DNA of 64,000 nt from Methylopila capsulata (lineage in GTDB: Bacteria > Pseudomonadota > Alphaproteobacteria > Rhizobiales > Methylopilaceae): NCBI RefSeq assembly GCF_016907975.1, contig NZ_JAFBCY010000002.1, positions 558,001 to 622,000 on the forward strand, written 5' to 3'. Within the stretch, counting starts at the first letter, position 1, and each line of letters starts with the position of its first letter. The notes beneath the pieces are model-generated. The model ran no database searches. It was not told the origin of the DNA and saw only the letters and a program-made list of their open reading frames with translations. The position numbers and the translations under genes were made by a program. Positions 1,251 to 31,812 of the stretch are shown piece after piece.

Positions 1251-1751
1251 ATGCCGTTGCCTATCGCTTCTGAGGCGCCCAACCGAAACGCCGACGCCAG
1301 ACTGGTCATTCCCGGGCTCGCGGGCTTCTACAACCGCGCGTATCCCATGAGCTACGCGGCGCTCAGGATCGCCTGCGGGCTGACGCTGGTCACCCATGGC
1401 CTGCCGAAGATCATGGGGACCGCCCATGGGTCCATGGCGGACCCGATGGCGGGCTCCACGCGGCTGATATCGGAAACGCTCGGACTGCCTTTCGGCGGGG
1501 AGCTCGCGTTGTTCGTCGCGATCCTGGAGTTCGCCGGCGGACTGATGCTCGCGGCGGGCCTGCTGACGCGCGTCGTCGCGCCGATGTTTGCGGTCCAGAT
1601 GGCGGTCATCTGCTGGTTGCTGGGCGCAACCTATCCATGGATCGACCGCGGTTTCGAATATCCTCTGATGCTGGGCTTCACCGCGCTGTTCATCGCCTTC
1701 CGCGGCGGCGGCCCGCTGTCGCTCGACAGGATGATTGGGCGCGAGCTCTAG
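1251..1751 (+). CDS. DoxX-family membrane protein
   Basis: 166 residues with about four hydrophobic segments. The LRIACGLTLVTHGLPKIMG region is the DoxX-type first helix, followed by FGGELALFVAILEFAGGLML and a membrane pair near the C-terminus. DoxX proteins are small inner-membrane proteins often linked to thiol or oxidative-stress chemistry; the specific role here is unknown. It lies 99 bases downstream of the SDR gene and may be cotranscribed with it. The start at 1251 is the first plausible ATG; a second in-frame ATG at 1347 is possible but would remove part of the conserved N-terminus. Confidence 0.8.
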   Translation: MPLPIASEAPNRNADARLVIPGLAGFYNRAYPMSYAALRIACGLTLVTHGLPKIMGTAHGSMADPMAGSTRLISETLGLPFGGELALFVAILEFAGGLMLAAGLLTRVVAPMFAVQMAVICWLLGATYPWIDRGFEYPLMLGFTALFIAFRGGGPLSLDRMIGREL

Positions 1752-2061
1752 GGCGACGCTCCACGCTCCTGGGACGACCGAACGGATCAGCGCGCCTATG
1801 GCGGTCGACCTTCTCCGGCGCGATCCGGCGCGCACGGCACGCCAGCTCCTGCACGATCGTCCCACGAGAGACTGAGGCGGCGACATGCGCCAGAAGCGGT
1901 CTTTCGCTTTCTTGCTGAGAGCGGACGCTCGCGTTTGCTGAGCGCTTCGCAAGCTCGCATCGCACATGGCCGTCGATGACGCGACCGCTGACGGCGCGCG
2001 AGGCCCCTATAGAAGAATGGGAGCCTTTAGGCGGCAGCGCCGCAGGTTTCGCCACAGCCGA
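1752..2061. other. intergenic region, no gene recognised
   Basis: About 310 bases between the DoxX gene and the ECF41-type promoter. Open frames here have no recognisable similarity, and codon use does not look coding. I see no convincing terminator. Confidence 0.5.
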
Positions 2062-2089
2062 TGTCACATCGCCTGTCAGCTCGCTCGTC
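2062..2089 (+). promoter_or_regulatory. ECF41-type promoter upstream of the NAD(P)-binding protein
   Basis: TGTCACA at 2062-2068 and CGTC at 2086-2089, spaced 17 bases. Known ECF41 promoters have TGTCACA and CGTC separated by about 16 bases. The predicted start of transcription is a few tens of bases before the ATG at 2134. The same motif occurs twice more next to the sigma gene; this copy is one base wider. Confidence 0.65.
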
Positions 2090-2133
2090 ATGTCGTCGAG
2101 GCCCCCGTGGGGACACGACAGATGGAGCGTCGC

Positions 2134-2892
2134 ATGAAGATCGTCGTTATTGGAGGGACGGGCCTGATCGGCTCCCAGCTTGTCGCCAAACTGAACGCCG
2201 CGGGACATGAGGTGGTCGCCGCCTCGCCCAACACCGGCGTCAACGCGGTCACGGGCGAAGGGCTCATCGAGGCGATGAAGGGCGCGACGGTGGTGGTCGA
2301 CGTCGCCAACTCTCCCTCCTTCGCGGACGACGCCGTGCTCGACTTCTTCGTCCGCGCCGGCCGCAACCTCGCAGCCGCCGAGACCGCGGCCGGCGTCTCG
2401 CACCACGTCGCGCTGTCGGTCGTCGGGACCGAGCGCCTGCTCGACAGCGGCTACTTCCGGGCGAAGCTCGCGCAGGAGGAGTTGATCGCCTCGTCCGGCA
2501 TCCCCTGGACGCTGGTGCGGGCCACCCAGTTCTTCGAGTTCGCCGGCGCGATCGCAGGCGCCGCGACGGTCGACGGCGTGACGCGCGCGACGTCACGCGC
2601 GATCCAGCCGGTCGCGTCGGCCGATGTCGCCGCGCTTGTCGCGGAGGTCGCGCTGGCGGCGCCGCTGAACGGGATGGTGGAGATCGCGGGCCCGGAGAAG
2701 ATGCCGGTCGCCACGCTCGTGAAGCTCTATTTCGAGTCCGTCGGCGAGCCGAAGAACGTGCTGGTGGACGATGCGGTGGGCTATTTCGGCACGATCATCG
2801 ACGATCGCTCCCTGACCCCCGACGAGGGCGCGCGCATCTCAGAGAAGCGGTTCGGCGACTGGGCCGCCGCTCAGCCCCCGCGCGCGATCTGA
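2134..2892 (+). CDS. NAD(P)-binding NmrA/SDR-like oxidoreductase
   Basis: 252 residues. The N-terminus MKIVVIGGTGLIGSQLV is a Rossmann GxxGxxG motif of the atypical (extended) SDR / NmrA type, and there is no classical YxxxK. A central SGIPWTLVRATQFFEF stretch is typical of NAD(P)H-binding epimerase-like proteins. ATG 2134 is chosen because GGAG precedes it at the right distance; ATG 2122 is an alternative. Genes for this kind of oxidoreductase/epimerase are classic neighbours and targets of ECF41 sigma factors, and an ECF41-type promoter lies just upstream. Substrate unknown. Confidence 0.85.
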   Translation: MKIVVIGGTGLIGSQLVAKLNAAGHEVVAASPNTGVNAVTGEGLIEAMKGATVVVDVANSPSFADDAVLDFFVRAGRNLAAAETAAGVSHHVALSVVGTERLLDSGYFRAKLAQEELIASSGIPWTLVRATQFFEFAGAIAGAATVDGVTRATSRAIQPVASADVAALVAEVALAAPLNGMVEIAGPEKMPVATLVKLYFESVGEPKNVLVDDAVGYFGTIIDDRSLTPDEGARISEKRFGDWAAAQPPRAI

Positions 2893-2906
2893 CAGGGCGC
2901 ACGCCG

Positions 2907-3347
2907 ATGGACGCGGGCTACATCTCGGCGCTCGCCGCCCTTGCCGGCTCGGCCATCGGCGCGCTTGCGTCCTTCGCCACCACATGGCTGACCCAGCACG
3001 CCCAGGAGCGCGCCACCCTGTTGGAGCAGGACCGCGCGCGCCGGGAAGCGCTTTATGGAGAGTTCATCCGGGAGGCCTCGACCCTGTTCGGCGACGCCTT
3101 CCGGCATGAGCTCGACGATCCGGCCAAGCTCGTGAACCTCTACGCCATCGTCAACAAGATCCGGCTGTTCGGCGAGGCCGGCACGCTCGCGGAGGCCGAG
3201 CGCGTCATGCAGCGCATCGGCGAAACCTATTTTTCCCCGAACAAGGATCTGGCCGCCTTCGCGGACATCCGACACGCAGGCGACCTCGACCCGCTCTGCG
3301 ACTTTTCGCACGCCTGCCGGGCGGAACTCGCAATTGCGCGGCGGTGA
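2907..3347 (+). CDS. small membrane-anchored hypothetical protein
   Basis: 146 residues. Residues about 6-28 form one hydrophobic helix (ALAALAGSAIGALASFATTW), followed by a charged, helix-rich cytosolic part with many Arg and Glu residues that may form a coiled coil. I recognise no catalytic motif. It begins 14 bases after the oxidoreductase stop and so is probably in the same ECF41-controlled transcript. It ends a few bases before the convergent sigma factor gene. Confidence 0.65.
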   Translation: MDAGYISALAALAGSAIGALASFATTWLTQHAQERATLLEQDRARREALYGEFIREASTLFGDAFRHELDDPAKLVNLYAIVNKIRLFGEAGTLAEAERVMQRIGETYFSPNKDLAAFADIRHAGDLDPLCDFSHACRAELAIARR

Positions 3348-3353
3348 CCGGCC

Positions 3354-4253
3354 TCAGTGGGCGCTCGGCGAGGCCGCGCCCCGCCCGAACCGCTCCACGA
3401 GCCGCTCCAGCTTGTCGGGGTTGCGCGTGAAGTAGATCCCGACGATCAGGCCGTTCTCGATCTCGAGCGCGACCGTCTGGAACGCGTTCCCCGGCTCGAG
3501 GCTGAGATAGCCTGGCAGGCCGTCGATCCAGAGATCCTGCAGCTTCTGCGCATTCTGGATCCACGACTTGCGCGCCACCCCCTCGAACATGCGCGCGACC
3601 TTGTCGACGCCGATGATCGGCTGCGGGAAGGCGTGCGCCTTGCCGCCGCCATCCGAGTGCACGACCACTGACTCTGCAAGCATCGCTCGAAGCGCCGCGA
3701 CGTCCCCGGACGCCGACGCCTCGAAAAACGCTTTAGCGATCGTCGCGCCCTCCTCCCGATCGACAGGGAAGCGCGGCTTTGCCGCCTGCACGTGCTTCCT
3801 CGCCCGTGCGGCAAGCTGCCGGATGGCCGGAGCCTCGCGGTCGAGGGTGGTGGCGATCTCGTTGAGCGGCATGCCGAAAACGTCGTGAAGAATGAACGCC
3901 GCGCGCTCGAGCGGGGAAAGCCGCTCCAGCGCCAGCATCAGGGTCAGCGTGATGTCGTCGCCGATGTCGTCCTCCGGCGTCGTGGCGAAGGGTTCCGGCA
4001 GCCAGGTGCCAAAATAGGTCTCGCGCTGCACGCGGGCGGACTTCATGACGTCGAGGCAGAGCCGCGTGACCGTCCGTGACAGGAACGCTCCAGGCGAGGC
4101 GACCTCCGAATGGTCGACCTGCCGCCAGCGGATCCAGGCGTCCTGAACCACGTCTTCCGCCTCGCCGAGCGAGCCGAGCATGCGGTAGGCGAGCCGGACG
4201 AGCCGAGGCCGCTCCGCCTGGAACGCGCCTGTCGCCTCGTCAGCGCTCAGCAT
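3354..4253 (-). CDS. ECF41-type RNA polymerase sigma factor with SnoaL-like C-terminal extension
   Basis: 299 residues, longer than a standard ECF sigma. Region 2 (LVRLAYRMLGSLGEAEDVVQ) spans about 18-37 and region 4 about 110-155 (DREAPAIRQLAARARKHV). A C-terminal SnoaL/NTF2-like domain follows, with the ECF41 hallmarks WLPEP (84-88) and DGGGK (201-205). In this family the extension regulates the sigma factor in place of a separate anti-sigma factor. The gene overlaps the upstream membrane-protein gene by 14 bases, so the two share a transcript whose promoter carries the ECF41 motif, implying autoregulation. The inducing signal is unknown. Confidence 0.93.
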   Translation of the reverse strand: MLSADEATGAFQAERPRLVRLAYRMLGSLGEAEDVVQDAWIRWRQVDHSEVASPGAFLSRTVTRLCLDVMKSARVQRETYFGTWLPEPFATTPEDDIGDDITLTLMLALERLSPLERAAFILHDVFGMPLNEIATTLDREAPAIRQLAARARKHVQAAKPRFPVDREEGATIAKAFFEASASGDVAALRAMLAESVVVHSDGGGKAHAFPQPIIGVDKVARMFEGVARKSWIQNAQKLQDLWIDGLPGYLSLEPGNAFQTVALEIENGLIVGIYFTRNPDKLERLVERFGRGAASPSAH

Positions 4254-4635
4254 GGCGCGCCGACCAGACCGTGAGCGCGATCGCGACGAGAGCAGGCGTC
4301 GTCACCGCCGGAAAGTCCCTCGCCAGCGCGTCGGGCCCGCAGATCCCGGTGGCGACCTCCCAGAAGTGAAACAGCGCGTGGCCGGACAGCCAGACCGCGC
4401 CGGCGCCCCAAAGCAGCGTGCGGACCTCGCGCCGCGCCGCGCCCAGGGCGAAGGCGGACCCGAGGCACACGAAGATCAGCCCGATGTCGCGGAGGAAGTG
4501 CTGGTTGAACGGACCCGTCGTGGTGACGCCCGGTATGGCGAAGTACCACGCCTGCGGATCCGCGAGCATGTAGAGGCCGTTCGCCGCGAGGCCGGCGCCG
4601 AACACGAGAGCGAAGGTCAAAATCGCCTTGGTCAT
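4240..4635 (-). CDS. small four-helix membrane protein, cotranscribed with the sigma factor
   Basis: 131 residues with four hydrophobic segments. It starts MTKAILTFALVFGAGLAANG and includes an unusual motif GPFNQHFLRDIGLIF in the second helix and HALFHFWE in the third. I do not recognise a named family with confidence; it resembles small DoxX-like or DUF-type inner-membrane proteins. Start 4635 is used because earlier in-frame codons fall inside the promoter, and GGGGA precedes this ATG. Its 3' end overlaps the sigma gene. It may be a sensor or target of the ECF41 circuit. Confidence 0.78.
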   Translation of the reverse strand: MTKAILTFALVFGAGLAANGLYMLADPQAWYFAIPGVTTTGPFNQHFLRDIGLIFVCLGSAFALGAARREVRTLLWGAGAVWLSGHALFHFWEVATGICGPDALARDFPAVTTPALVAIALTVWSARHAER

Positions 4636-4668
4636 GAAGATGTCCCCAAACGGAATGTTCGGGGCTGT

Positions 4669-4695
4669 GACGAGCCGGCGTCGGCGCATGTGACA
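4669..4695 (-). promoter_or_regulatory. ECF41-type promoter of the membrane protein / sigma operon
   Basis: On the minus strand TGTCACA (4695-4689) and CGTC (4672-4669) are separated by exactly 16 bases, the known ECF41 promoter geometry. It lies about 35 bases before the start at 4635 and would make the sigma operon self-activating. Confidence 0.75.
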
Positions 4696-4816
4696 TCGTG
4701 CGGGAGATATTCGCTCGAACCTGCTTCTCGCAGCGAAAGGCGGGCGCGACCGAAGCCTTCAAGACGCCCTCCCCAGGGCAATGGCGACGGGCGCCCGAGG
4801 CGATTTCCCTCCAGCA

Positions 4817-4843
4817 TGTCACATCCCGGCCGGGCCGCTCGTC
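4817..4843 (+). promoter_or_regulatory. ECF41-type promoter upstream of the metallo-beta-lactamase-fold gene
   Basis: TGTCACA at 4817-4823 and CGTC at 4840-4843, 16-base spacer. It points toward the hydrolase gene starting at 4978, leaving a leader of about 130 bases. It is divergent from the copy at 4669-4695. Confidence 0.72.
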
Positions 4844-4977
4844 TTCCCTTCGCGACGTCCGAACGCCGGCGTCGCGCGACCGGAGGCGGAATCCTCGGCG
4901 GCGCGCTGAAGACCGCTCAGCCGCAAGCCGCCGCTTTCGCTTCCGCCATGGCGATCAAATCTCGGAAGGATGCAGAA

Positions 4978-5895
4978 ATGGACATCGGATCTCCTGTCCG
5001 GGCTCCTCTTGCGAAGCCCCATGACCTGGTGCCGTCACGCTATGCCGTGCGCGTCGGCGACATCGACGTGCTGGTGATCAGCGACGGGGTGCTGCCGCTC
5101 CCCACCGCAATGCTGGGGCACAACGCCGCCCTGGCCGACCGGACCGCCTGGCTGGACGAGATGTTCCTGCCGCGGGAGGCGTTCGACTGGTCGCTCAACG
5201 TGGTCGTGGTTCACAGCGGCGACCAGACGATCCTCATCGACGCGGGTCTCGGCTTCGATCCGGACCTCAATCTGCCGCGCGCCGGGCAACTGATCATGCG
5301 GCTGGAGGCCGCCGGCATCGATCTTGGGTCGGTCACCGACGTGGTGCTCACCCACATGCACATGGATCACGTCGGCGGCCTTCTCGTGGACGGCGTGAAG
5401 GACGCGCTGCGTCCGGACCTGCGGATCCACGTCGCGGCCGCCGAGGTCGCGTTCTGGGAGGCTCCGGACTTTTCCCTCACCTCCATGCCGCAAGGATTTC
5501 CGGACGCGCTGAAGTCCGCCGCCAAGCGGTTTGTGATCGCCTACCGCGACCAGTTGCGGATGTTCGAGGACGAGCATGAGGTGGCGCCCGGAGTTGTGGT
5601 CCAGCGCATCGGCGGCCACACTCCGGGACACAGCGTCGTTCGCGTCGCCTCCGGCGGCGACCGGCTGACCTTCGCCGGCGACGCGGTGTTCACGGTCGGG
5701 TTCGATCATCCCGATTGGCACAACGGCTTCGAGCACGACCCGGAGGAGGCCGCCCGCGTCAGGGTCAGGCTTCTGCGAGAGCTTGCGGCGACCGGCGAAC
5801 AGCTGGTCGCGACCCACCTGCCGTTTCCGTCCGTCGGCCGGGTCGCGGTCGAGGGCGAAACGTTCCGCTGGGCGCCGGCGTACTGGGACTACTGA
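4978..5895 (+). CDS. metallo-beta-lactamase-fold hydrolase
   Basis: 305 residues. The metal site HMHMDH is at about 126-131, followed by GGHTPGHS (third ligand) and FAGDAVF (bridging Asp), then a late His in ATHLPFPS. This is the glyoxalase II / quorum-lactonase type of MBL-fold enzyme (Zn or Fe), probably cytosolic since no signal peptide is seen. Start 4978 has AAGGA seven bases before it; ATG 4948 is the alternative. It is placed in the ECF41 regulon by the promoter at 4817. The substrate could be a lactone, thioester or phosphoester; sequence alone does not decide. Confidence 0.88.
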   Translation: MDIGSPVRAPLAKPHDLVPSRYAVRVGDIDVLVISDGVLPLPTAMLGHNAALADRTAWLDEMFLPREAFDWSLNVVVVHSGDQTILIDAGLGFDPDLNLPRAGQLIMRLEAAGIDLGSVTDVVLTHMHMDHVGGLLVDGVKDALRPDLRIHVAAAEVAFWEAPDFSLTSMPQGFPDALKSAAKRFVIAYRDQLRMFEDEHEVAPGVVVQRIGGHTPGHSVVRVASGGDRLTFAGDAVFTVGFDHPDWHNGFEHDPEEAARVRVRLLRELAATGEQLVATHLPFPSVGRVAVEGETFRWAPAYWDY

Positions 5896-6069
5896 TCTGA
5901 AGTCGGGGTGAGGCATCGGATCTGGGACGCGCTCCACCTTGGCGCCTGCGCGTCCCAAGTCCTCAAATCATCTCTGCCGTTCCGAGCAAGAAGCGAAAAT
6001 TTGGCCCTCGCAGATTCAGGTCCCGACGGCGTTAGAGGGCGACCAGCCCTTCCCCTCGTCCGAGGCTCG

Positions 6070-7050
6070 TCATTCGATCCGGATCCGGCTTTCCTTCGCG
6101 ACCGTCTCCCACCGGCTGTAGTCCGCCTCGAGCAGTTTCTGAAAAGCCGCGCCGGTTTTCGCCGTCACCACCGCGCCGTCCTTGGTGAAGAGGTCAGAAA
6201 CCTTGGGCTGGCGCATGGCGTTCCCGGACACGCTCGCAATACGGTCGACGATCGGCTGCGGGGTTCCAGCCCGCACCATGATGCCAAACCACGCCCCGAC
6301 ATCAAAGTCGGGATAGCCGGACTCGGCCATTGTGGGAACGTTCGGCAGGATGGACGAACGCTGTCTGGAGCTCACCGCGAGCGGCCGCAGCTTGCCGGCG
6401 CGTATGTTCGCGATGCAGGCGACGATGTTATCGAACATCATATCGACCCGGCCGGTCGTGAGGTCGAGCTGCGCCGGCCCGCTGCCGCGATAGGGCACAT
6501 GGACGATGTCGATCCCGGCGGTGAGCTTGAGGAACTCGCTCGCCATCTGGTGCGAGGTGCCGGGGCCGGAAGATGCGAAGCTGATGCCGCCGGGCTTTTC
6601 CTTGGCGAGAGCGACAAGCTCCTGCACCGAATTCGCCTTTACGTCCGGATGCACCACGAGCACCAGAGGCATCGTCGTAAGCTCGATGACGGGGATGAAG
6701 TCCTTGCGCGGATCGAAGGTCAGCTTCTTCATCGTGACCGCCGTGATCGTGTGAGCGGCGGTCGCCATCAGCAGCGTGTAGCCGTCGGCGGGCGCAGCCG
6801 CGACCGATCCTGTGCCGATGGCGCCGCCCGCCCCCGGCTTGTTCTCGATGACGATCGGCTGGCCGAGCATGTCGCCCATCGACGCGCCGAGGGCGCGCGA
6901 CAGGATGTCGGAGGCGCTCCCCGGCGGGAACGGCACGGTGATCTGGACCGGCTTGGCGGGCCAATCCGACGCACCGGCACGCGCCTTAGTCAGAAAGACC
7001 GGCGCCGCAAGCGCGCCGGCCCCGAGGGCGAGAAACTCCCTACGCCGCAT
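6070..7050 (-). CDS. Bug/TctC-type tripartite tricarboxylate transporter substrate-binding protein (orphan)
   Basis: 326 residues. The N-terminus MRRREFLALGAGALAAPVF carries a twin-arginine-like signal. The mature part has the family sequence PVQITVPFPPGSASDILSR, PGAGGAIGTG and DGYTLLMATAAHT, all hallmarks of periplasmic Bug proteins that bind carboxylates. No TctA or TctB partner lies nearby, which is common for this family. It is the last gene of a minus-strand operon with an FAD oxidoreductase and a GntR regulator, suggesting uptake of the acid the oxidoreductase handles. Confidence 0.92.
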   Translation of the reverse strand: MRRREFLALGAGALAAPVFLTKARAGASDWPAKPVQITVPFPPGSASDILSRALGASMGDMLGQPIVIENKPGAGGAIGTGSVAAAPADGYTLLMATAAHTITAVTMKKLTFDPRKDFIPVIELTTMPLVLVVHPDVKANSVQELVALAKEKPGGISFASSGPGTSHQMASEFLKLTAGIDIVHVPYRGSGPAQLDLTTGRVDMMFDNIVACIANIRAGKLRPLAVSSRQRSSILPNVPTMAESGYPDFDVGAWFGIMVRAGTPQPIVDRIASVSGNAMRQPKVSDLFTKDGAVVTAKTGAAFQKLLEADYSRWETVAKESRIRIE

Positions 7051-30936: not shown

Positions 30937-31656
30937 TCACCCCGTCATCAATGCGACCGACTTGGGGTCGAACGGCCGGCCCCTTTCATTGAAAAAGCCG
31001 GCGGCCGCGAGCTCGGCCGAGATGGCCCGATAGCTGCGTCGCTCACCCGTCTTCGGACTTCTCCGGCGCAGACGCTTCGCCAGTGCGACCGCTTCCGGGC
31101 GAACCTCAGCATGCGACTTGCGACCTTCGCACTTGCCCGTCGCGAGCTTCTTACGCTCCCGGGCGCCGCGGAGCTTGGCGACGATCGAGGCCTTCTCGAA
31201 CTGTGACACCGCGCCGAGGATCTGGCGGACCATGATGGCTGTCGGCGTGTCCTCGAGAAACGCGCCAGGGCTATCGGCGGCGACTAGGTCGATCCCCCGC
31301 GCCTTCAGCAGCGCATAGCCCGTCTCTTGAACGATCAGATCACGGGCGAAACGGTTGGCGGTCTCGACGATGATCGTGCGGACGTCCGGGTTCTCGTCGA
31401 GGAAAGCGAGCAAGTCGCCGAAGCCACGGCGCGTGCCGAGGTGGTCCGCGCCGCTGACCGCGACGTCATAGAAGTCAGCGACCATCTCGACGCCATGGCG
31501 AGCCGCGTAGGCCTCCATCGCCACGAGCTGGCGCTTCTGGCTGTCCTTATCGTCGCCGGTGTTCGCTGCCGACGACGTGCGAGCATAAGCCACGGCCTTG
31601 CGCCGAACGGGCGCGTCAAGGCGCTGGCCGCCGATCGACTTCGCCTTTCGTGCCAT
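30937..31656 (-). CDS. serine recombinase (resolvase/invertase family)
   Basis: 239 residues from ATG 31656; an in-frame ATG at 31671 is equally possible. The resolvase domain is clear: VAYARTSSAANTGDDKDSQK holds the catalytic Ser region. TIIVETANRFARDLIVQETG and AVSQFEKASIVAKLRGARER hold the active-site Arg residues and E-helix. A C-terminal segment SYRAISAELAAAGFFNERGR is the HTH. It is too short to be a large serine integrase, so resolution or inversion is likelier than integration. The 47-base hairpin 157 bases upstream is a candidate site. Confidence 0.88.
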   Translation of the reverse strand: MARKAKSIGGQRLDAPVRRKAVAYARTSSAANTGDDKDSQKRQLVAMEAYAARHGVEMVADFYDVAVSGADHLGTRRGFGDLLAFLDENPDVRTIIVETANRFARDLIVQETGYALLKARGIDLVAADSPGAFLEDTPTAIMVRQILGAVSQFEKASIVAKLRGARERKKLATGKCEGRKSHAEVRPEAVALAKRLRRRSPKTGERRSYRAISAELAAAGFFNERGRPFDPKSVALMTG

Positions 31657-31812
31657 GATCTTAACTCTCATACCTGTGTAGCTATCCTCAGAAATATACA
31701 CACGCACCCTTGGCGGACAAGGGCAACCCCGTCAGCGGTCGCAAAATAAAAATCCGACCCGGACCGACCGAGCGACCTACAATATTTGCCTCTTAAATCA
31801 GCAACATAAAGT

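What the first reader, a model, noticed from the sequence alone, without database searches (positions are those of the whole stretch)
2062..4843. Self-contained ECF41 regulon with three promoter copies
The sigma factor at 3354-4253 has the ECF41 signs (WLPEP, DGGGK, SnoaL-like C-terminal domain). TGTCACA and CGTC pairs occur at 2062, 4669 (minus) and 4817, with 17-, 16- and 16-base spacers. They point at an NmrA-like oxidoreductase plus a small membrane protein, the sigma operon itself, and an MBL-fold hydrolase. Oxidoreductase neighbours are known for ECF41; a divergent MBL hydrolase, a four-helix membrane protein cotranscribed with sigma and self-activation make a full circuit within 4 kb.
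Basis: partly seen in the sequence, partly recalled or inferred. Interest (0 to 1): 0.75.

Follow-up and report, generated by a model that had tools for sequence, protein, structure and literature searches.

The report
Three-promoter ECF41 sigma factor regulon
A bacterial gene switch of a known kind (an ECF41 sigma factor) sits beside three matching promoter copies that it most likely uses to turn on itself, a reductase-like protein and a hydrolase, and the same arrangement is kept in related bacteria.

Summary
TGTCACA/CGTC pairs lie at 2062 (+, N17), 4669 (-, N16) and 4817 (+, N16). They are the only exact N15-17 pairs in the 4.135-Mb genome, a Methylopila relative by its best matches. The sigma gene is its only ECF41-type one.

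ECF41, this promoter and self-activation are already in print (PMC3426412). What goes beyond that paper's "single target gene or operon" is a conserved three-unit circuit: NmrA-small protein, TM4-sigma, MBL hydrolase. Twelve distinct loci carry three such sites, all in one sigma clade. In six of them the MBL gene lies elsewhere but keeps its site. Of 44 close MBL orthologues in 397 genomes of the order, 6 bear the site: 5 of 5 beside this sigma, 1 of 39 without it nearby. Without the site, MBL, NmrA, TM4 or CMD genes often cluster, some beside LysR or winged-helix/TPR regulators.

Best reading: an ECF41 positive-feedback switch over a portable, probably detoxifying, effector module. Inducer unknown; nothing was tested at the bench. 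A new variant of a known kind.

The parts
2062..2089 (+). ECF41-type promoter, TGTCACA-N17-CGTC, for nmrA-smp; predicted start G at 2098
   Evidence: Exact match. Site found before NmrA in 14 of 14 loci. Start inferred from C at +11 in 86 and G at +12 in 82 of 118 sites.
2122..2892 (+). NmrA-like NAD(P)-binding protein (PF13460/PF05368); alternative start 2134
   Evidence: NmrA 34.5 bits, cut-off 27; gene call of my own script
2907..3347 (+). SMP: small protein with an N-terminal hydrophobic stretch, 14 nt after nmrA; probably cotranscribed with it
   Evidence: No Pfam or NCBIfam family (nothing above cut-off). 36-94% identical to 13 aligned sequences. Beside NmrA in 12 of 14 loci, in two pieces in L178. 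Membrane location read from the sequence only.
3354..4253 (-). ECF41 sigma factor with SnoaL-like C-terminal domain
   Evidence: NF007214 362 bits, cut-off 271; SigJ 5xe7 149 bits; only ECF41-type gene found in the genome
4240..4635 (-). TM4: four-helix membrane protein, gene overlaps the sigma start by 14 nt
   Evidence: AlphaFold model, mean pLDDT 93, four long helices. N44, H46, H86, H90 among the invariant residues of 24 sequences. No Pfam family above cut-off for this protein. No fold match at E <= 0.001.
4669..4695 (-). ECF41-type promoter, TGTCACA-N16-CGTC, for TM4-sigma; predicted start G at 4660
   Evidence: Found in 13 of 13 loci, always N16
4817..4843 (+). ECF41-type promoter, TGTCACA-N16-CGTC, for the MBL gene; predicted start G at 4852
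   Evidence: Found in 11 of 11 loci, six of them with MBL in another position. In 44 close orthologues: 5 of 5 sigma-linked have it, 38 of 39 others lack it.
4978..5895 (+). MBL-fold hydrolase (lactonase / organophosphate-hydrolase-like), motif THMHMDH
   Evidence: Lactamase_B 91.2 bits, cut-off 22.7; 7y7u 141 bits, then organophosphorus and methyl parathion hydrolases; AidB lactonase model 127.7 bits, below its cut-off of 360

Best explanation
This is an ECF41 (SigJ-like) positive-feedback regulon of three transcription units. An unknown signal relieves inhibition by the SnoaL-like C-terminal domain of the sigma factor. The active sigma then directs RNA polymerase to three copies of TGTCACA-N16/17-CGTC. 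One copy drives TM4-sigma (self-amplification), one drives NmrA-SMP, and one drives the divergent MBL-fold hydrolase. The proteins made are most likely an effector module that reduces and hydrolyses a reactive small molecule, perhaps a lactone, ester or other electrophile, with TM4 as a membrane partner. Supported by comparison: the family of the sigma, the three sites, their conservation, and the tie of each site to a sigma-linked gene copy. Taken from published work on other ECF41 factors: promoter recognition and C-terminal inhibition. Inferred: the signal, the substrate, TM4's role, and operation as a positive-feedback switch.
For: Three exact sites, the only N15-17 ones in the genome. Sigma family, sole ECF41-type gene found. 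In 80 named ECF41 loci, 107 of 109 exact sites lie within 330 bases upstream of a CMD (48), NmrA (19), sigma (16), TM4 (15) or MBL (9) homologue on the same strand. A control pattern with each half reversed gives 0 against 143 sites over 119 partly redundant loci. Sites found before NmrA 14/14, TM4 13/13, MBL 11/11, while flanks and spacers of those loci are only 37-57% alike. MBL keeps its site in six loci where it lies elsewhere. All loci with three or more sites fall in one sigma clade, support 1.0. Of 44 MBL orthologues in 38 of 397 genomes, 6 bear the site: 5 of 5 beside this sigma, 1 of 39 elsewhere. In the genus, this sigma, TM4, SMP and this MBL occur together in the same 4 of 13 genomes; a fifth, G007, has fragments only. 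Published motif, autoregulation and C-terminal inhibition: PMC3426412, PMC8999054 passages, S. meliloti RpoE9 in PMC6180224 passages.
Against: No transcript data. In G344 two sites (before MBL and NmrA) persist although the cognate sigma was not found in that genome; the only ECF41 found there at E <= 1e-30 is a 64%-identical one on another contig, so a site does not strictly need this sigma, and that MBL copy carries one in-frame TGA. The exact motif occurs 0 to 18 times per genome and at least once in 137 of 150 genomes, often at rates like the reversed control, so a site alone proves little. The 126-nt MBL leader is longer than the 22/23 nt mapped for published ECF41 promoters. Eight of 83 ECF41 loci read have no exact site.
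Confidence: 0.85

Rival explanations
1. Ordinary two-target ECF41 locus (self plus NmrA); the MBL site is a fortuitous or decaying copy and MBL has another regulator.
For: MBL has a long leader. The ECF41 factors of the 2012 paper and S. meliloti RpoE9 have one target. MBL is missing in L043, L048 and L049.
Against: Exact site before MBL in 11 of 11 loci, six of them with MBL elsewhere. Site absent in 38 of 39 orthologues without this sigma nearby. In L043 a CMD gene stands in the MBL slot, again with a site.
Confidence: 0.1
2. TM4 is an anti-sigma factor or membrane sensor that holds the ECF41 sigma, so the circuit is a classical sigma/anti-sigma pair in disguise.
For: The TM4 gene overlaps the sigma gene. 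TM4 relatives lie next to ECF41 genes in other contexts: L054 and L060 downstream; L076, L096, L113 and L116-L119 upstream. Invariant His residues suggest a ligand or cofactor site.
Against: TM4 sits with NmrA, and sometimes MBL, in genomes with no ECF41 at E <= 1e-30: G021, G105, G189, G368, G357; G327 has TM4 near MBL. Many ECF41 loci have no TM4 hit. Full-length Ecf41Bli works in B. subtilis, which has no ECF41 of its own.
Confidence: 0.12
3. The sites are read mainly by another sigma factor or by ECF41 factors in general, so this is not a closed circuit.
For: The same motif is found at most ECF41 loci read (75 of 83). G344 keeps two sites with only a distant ECF41 elsewhere.
Against: Only one ECF41-type gene was found in this genome, and three exact N15-17 sites, all here.
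Confidence: 0.05

Closest known systems
ECF41 sigma factors of Bacillus licheniformis and Rhodobacter sphaeroides (PMC3426412; abstract, passages, sections 20, 25 and 30 read)
   Same: Sigma domains plus C-terminal extension, TGTCACA-n16-CGTC promoter, linked CMD (in others oxidoreductase or NmrA/epimerase) gene; motif often before both genes when divergent
   Different: Those control one gene or operon. Here there are three units, including an MBL hydrolase and a TM4-sigma operon.
Sinorhizobium meliloti RpoE9 (PMC6180224, passages seen)
   Same: ECF41 factor with a TGTCACA/CGTC promoter at a mapped start and a very small regulon
   Different: Single CMD-rpoE9 operon as target; no MBL, NmrA or TM4 unit reported in the passages
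Mycobacterium SigJ (structure 5xe7)
   Same: Sequence match over residues 8-282 (149 bits)
   Different: Only the protein sequence was compared here; its promoters were not
CMD-MBL-NmrA and NmrA-TM4-MBL gene rows of other genomes of the same order (L168, L215, L217; L212, L213)
   Same: Homologous effector genes side by side
   Different: Beside LysR genes (L168, L215, L217) or TPR-bearing genes (L212, L213); full winged-helix/TPR regulators beside NmrA and TM4 in L218, L174, L175. No ECF41 site

Membership tests
ECF41 sigma factors | Sigma regions 2 and 4 | tested here: met
   Sigma70_r2 52.2 bits (cut-off 24) and r4_2 45.6 bits (cut-off 25.7)
ECF41 sigma factors | C-terminal SnoaL-like extension with WLPEP / DGGGK / NPDK-type motifs | tested here: met
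SnoaL_2 E 6.6e-5 but below the Pfam cut-off; match to SigJ through residue 282; motifs read and present in 65, 64 and 72 of 83 sigma stretches.
ECF41 sigma factors | Promoter TGTCACA-16+/-1-CGTC at target genes | tested here: met
   published motif
ECF41 sigma factors | Linked CMD, oxidoreductase or epimerase/NmrA gene (about 60% of members in Table 4 of the 2012 paper) | tested here: met
   NmrA 34.5 bits, cut-off 27; class definition
ECF41 sigma factors | No anti-sigma gene beside it | tested here: inconclusive
   No known anti-sigma family among the neighbours scanned, but TM4 is of unknown function
ECF41 sigma factors | Only one target gene or operon (general statement of the 2012 paper, not a strict definition) | tested here: not met
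   Three separately promoted units; inferred from sequence
ECF41 sigma factors | C-terminal extension inhibits activity | not testable with these tools
   Published for two other members
AidB-type AHL lactonases (MBL protein) | Curated score of NF047979 | tested here: not met
   127.7 bits against a cut-off of 360; substrate not testable here
DoxX / DUF4345 membrane proteins (TM4) | Pfam match | tested here: not met
   DoxX_2 and DUF4345 hit 3 of 24 members each, best E 0.018 and 4.3e-4; P0002 itself hits neither

The most novel reading that the evidence does not exclude
ECF41 has taken over (or been replaced as) the regulator of a portable effector module. NmrA, TM4 and MBL, which lie in one row beside TPR-bearing genes in other genomes of the order (L212, L213), are here separate units, each with its own copy of the sigma's promoter, so that sigma and effector genes form a self-amplifying cassette gained or lost as a block. 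TM4 with its invariant histidines may be a membrane redox or metal component that reports to the switch. The direction of the exchange was not tested.
Probability: 0.3. Interest if true: 0.6.

Novelty: new variant of a known kind. Interest (0 to 1): 0.42.

Why it matters
The inducer and physiological role of ECF41 factors were open in the 2012 paper, which states that no inducing condition was known. A conserved three-unit output, with related modules beside other regulators, gives a concrete handle: finding what MBL, NmrA and TM4 jointly act on would point to the ECF41 signal. The locus also questions the general rule that ECF41 factors have a single target, and gives a compact self-activating circuit that could be tested in Methylobacterium laboratory strains.

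Tried and rejected
SDR and DoxX genes at 411-1751 as further members: no exact site before them, and no DoxX hit and only SDR hits of 26-44% in the 13 other loci searched. Rejected.

A wider regulon in this genome: the loose pattern TGTCAC-N16-18-YGTC gives 13 places, 10 of them outside the locus, against 3 for the reversed control. None of the 10 is an exact TGTCACA-N15-17-CGTC site. The nearest to one (L182, TGTC in place of CGTC) has no long open frame right after it; the other nine were not followed. The exact N18 match at 31180 lies inside a same-strand ORF (30937-31707) and has G after TGTCACA, which 8 of 118 ECF41 sites have. It is probably chance.

Genome-wide motif counts as a test of sigma dependence: uninformative, background too high.

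Downstream genes by a first ORF picker: its largest cluster, 66 of 109, mixed CMD with other and wrongly picked frames, so I used the homology count instead.

TM4 fold by structure search: no match at E <= 0.001. The Pizza-protein hits have no matched stretch that passes on its own and were discarded. Terminators: two terminator-like sites in 1700-6100 (5993-6011 and inside the MBL gene), none between the convergent genes; mean 2.6 in shuffles.

Papers: five searches listed no paper on an MBL gene as an ECF41 target or on this locus, judged from titles, abstract starts and the passages named; the 18 papers were not all opened. Most subscription papers, including a later ECF41/ECF42 C-terminal study (seen as a reference only), are not held. 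An ECF41 factor said to control motility and lateral flagella in Azospirillum was seen only as a title in a reference list, so larger ECF41 regulons may be in print.
Full report
Observation. In the genome that holds the window (4,135,070 bases) the pattern TGTCACA-N15-18-CGTC occurs four times, three of them within 2.8 kb here. With N15-17 only three remain, against one match of the reversed control. The sigma gene at 3354-4253 is the only ECF41-type gene found in the genome; the other five hits reach at most 43 bits and stop by residue 158.

Anatomy. Site 2062 (+) reads into an NmrA-like gene and, 14 nt after it, a 146-aa protein (SMP) whose N-terminal stretch looks membrane-spanning by eye. 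Site 4669 (-) reads into a 131-aa four-helix membrane protein (TM4, 4635 to 4240) whose end overlaps the sigma start by 14 nt. Site 4817 (+) reads into an MBL-fold hydrolase with a long leader. In 118 ECF41 sites (83 loci; L178 repeats L040, and relatives are not independent) the base before TGTCACA is A in 102, the base before CGTC is T in 106, and counting the first C of CGTC as 0, +11 is C in 86 and +12 is G in 82. If the start is the G at +12 (the two published starts are at a G), the starts here are 2098, 4660 and 4852, giving leaders of 24 (or 36), 25 and 126 nt. The sigma and SMP genes converge with six bases between their stops and no terminator-like site there.

Proteins. Sigma: SigJ subfamily NF007214, 362 bits (cut-off 271); solved structure 5xe7. 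MBL: Lactamase_B 91.2 bits, best solved relatives 7y7u and organophosphorus / methyl parathion hydrolases; it fails the AidB lactonase cut-off. NmrA: passes PF05368 and PF13460. TM4: AlphaFold model with mean pLDDT 93, four long helices, N44, H46, H86 and H90 among 15 invariant residues in 24 sequences, no Pfam family above cut-off and no PDB fold match at E <= 0.001.

Conservation of the circuit. They hold 109 exact sites, of which 107 lie within 330 bases upstream of a same-strand homologue of CMD (48), NmrA (19), sigma (16), TM4 (15) or MBL (9); the other two are L053 2586 (-) and L069 5744 (-), the latter before a cyclase gene. Twelve distinct loci have three sites belonging to this system: four Methylopila (window, L040/L178, L179, L041; the genus of the window and of L179 taken from kinship) and eight Methylobacterium/Methylorubrum (L042-L047, L050, L069; L069 has two more sites for a second ECF41 system). 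They fall in one sigma clade of 15 tips (support 1.0; L040 and L178 are the same locus), which also holds L048 and L049, where TM4 or SMP is damaged or missing and MBL absent. The site was found before NmrA in 14 of 14 loci, before TM4-sigma in 13 of 13 (L048 dropped: TM4 hit too weak), and before MBL in 11 of 11 (L043, L048, L049 have no MBL hit). Spacers and flanks of the same loci are only 37-57% identical (the 100% at the two motif halves there follows from selecting exact matches, so the counts are the test). In six loci (L044-L047, L050, L069) MBL lies beyond NmrA instead of divergent from TM4, yet keeps its site. In L043 a carboxymuconolactone decarboxylase gene, the classical ECF41 target, stands in the MBL slot with its own site.

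Natural controls. In 397 genomes of the order, 38 have 44 MBL orthologues at E <= 1e-120. I checked about 400 bases upstream of all 44 (32, 12). Six bear the exact site: five beside this sigma (G000, G009, G010, G011, G186) and one, G344, where MBL and NmrA keep their sites but this sigma was not found in the assembly; the only ECF41 found in G344 at E <= 1e-30 is a 64% one on another contig, and its MBL has one in-frame TGA. The other 38, at 70-83% identity, have none, and no sigma hit within the stretch read (mostly 1.5 kb each side, 12-19 kb in all for 13 genomes). For six of the 13 even a looser pattern gave no site in 16-19 kb. Ten of the 38 lie within about 1.5 kb of an NmrA homologue. 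Some form rows: CMD-MBL-NmrA with a LysR gene divergent (L168, L215) or nearby (L217), and NmrA-TM4-MBL beside TPR-bearing genes (L212, L213); L218, L174 and L175 have full winged-helix/TPR regulators beside NmrA and TM4. The genomes of L212, L213, L218, L174, L175 and L214 have no ECF41 at E <= 1e-30, whereas those of L215, L216 and L217 have one elsewhere. So the effector genes travel together without ECF41, and the promoter goes with the sigma.

Within the genus, this sigma, TM4, SMP and the close MBL are found in the same 4 of 13 genomes. G007 has only fragments of MBL and TM4 side by side. G009, G010 and G012 carry a different ECF41 of 50-51% identity (two of the three with an in-frame stop). 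NmrA was not searched genome by genome. This points to gain or loss as a block.

Mechanism. Published work (PMC3426412: abstract, passages and sections 20, 25, 30 read; PMC8999054 and PMC6180224: passages only) shows or argues for other members that ECF41 sigma recognises TGTCACA-n16-CGTC, that most of the C-terminal extension inhibits it, that no separate anti-sigma seems to be needed, and that one gene or operon is the usual target. Applied here: release of the SnoaL-like domain would fire all three units, one of which makes more sigma. That gives a positive-feedback switch whose output is an NAD(P)-binding reductase-like protein, an MBL hydrolase, and two small membrane proteins. The chemistry suggests handling of a reactive small molecule; this is inference. 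TM4 as an anti-sigma is less likely because it occurs with NmrA in genomes without ECF41.

Known or new. The sigma group, promoter, self-activation and NmrA neighbour are known. An MBL unit and a TM4-sigma unit in a conserved three-promoter ECF41 circuit did not appear in the five paper searches made, in a library that lacks most subscription papers. I rate it a new variant of a known kind.

Noticed in passing
L069:4228-5744 (Methylobacterium sp. Leaf123): A second ECF41 system beside the first (NmrA-TM4-sigma) has a divergent exact ECF41 site before an adenylate/guanylate cyclase gene; a cyclase gene also lies near NmrA-TM4 in L175, whose genome has no ECF41.
   Followed up: partly
L229 and L230 (G344): ECF41 sites before MBL and NmrA persist although the cognate sigma is missing; a 64%-identical ECF41 elsewhere might serve them in trans. 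The MBL copy has one in-frame TGA.
   Followed up: partly
L043:4911-5437: CMD gene with ECF41 site occupies the slot that MBL has in relatives: target exchange at one promoter position.
   Followed up: yes
L173:8018-8458 (own genome, contig C3): Second copy of the small protein SMP, 90% identical, between an isochorismatase-family gene and another gene, without an ECF41 site in 16 kb.
   Followed up: partly
L176:7575-7889 (G007): Fragments of MBL (C-terminus) and TM4 side by side: a relic of the locus in a congener without this sigma.
   Followed up: no
window 3347-3354: NmrA-SMP and TM4-sigma units converge with six bases between stops and no terminator-like site; their transcripts may collide.
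   Followed up: no
window 31180-31208 (-): Fourth exact TGTCACA...CGTC pair in the genome, N18, inside a same-strand ORF; probably chance.
   Followed up: partly
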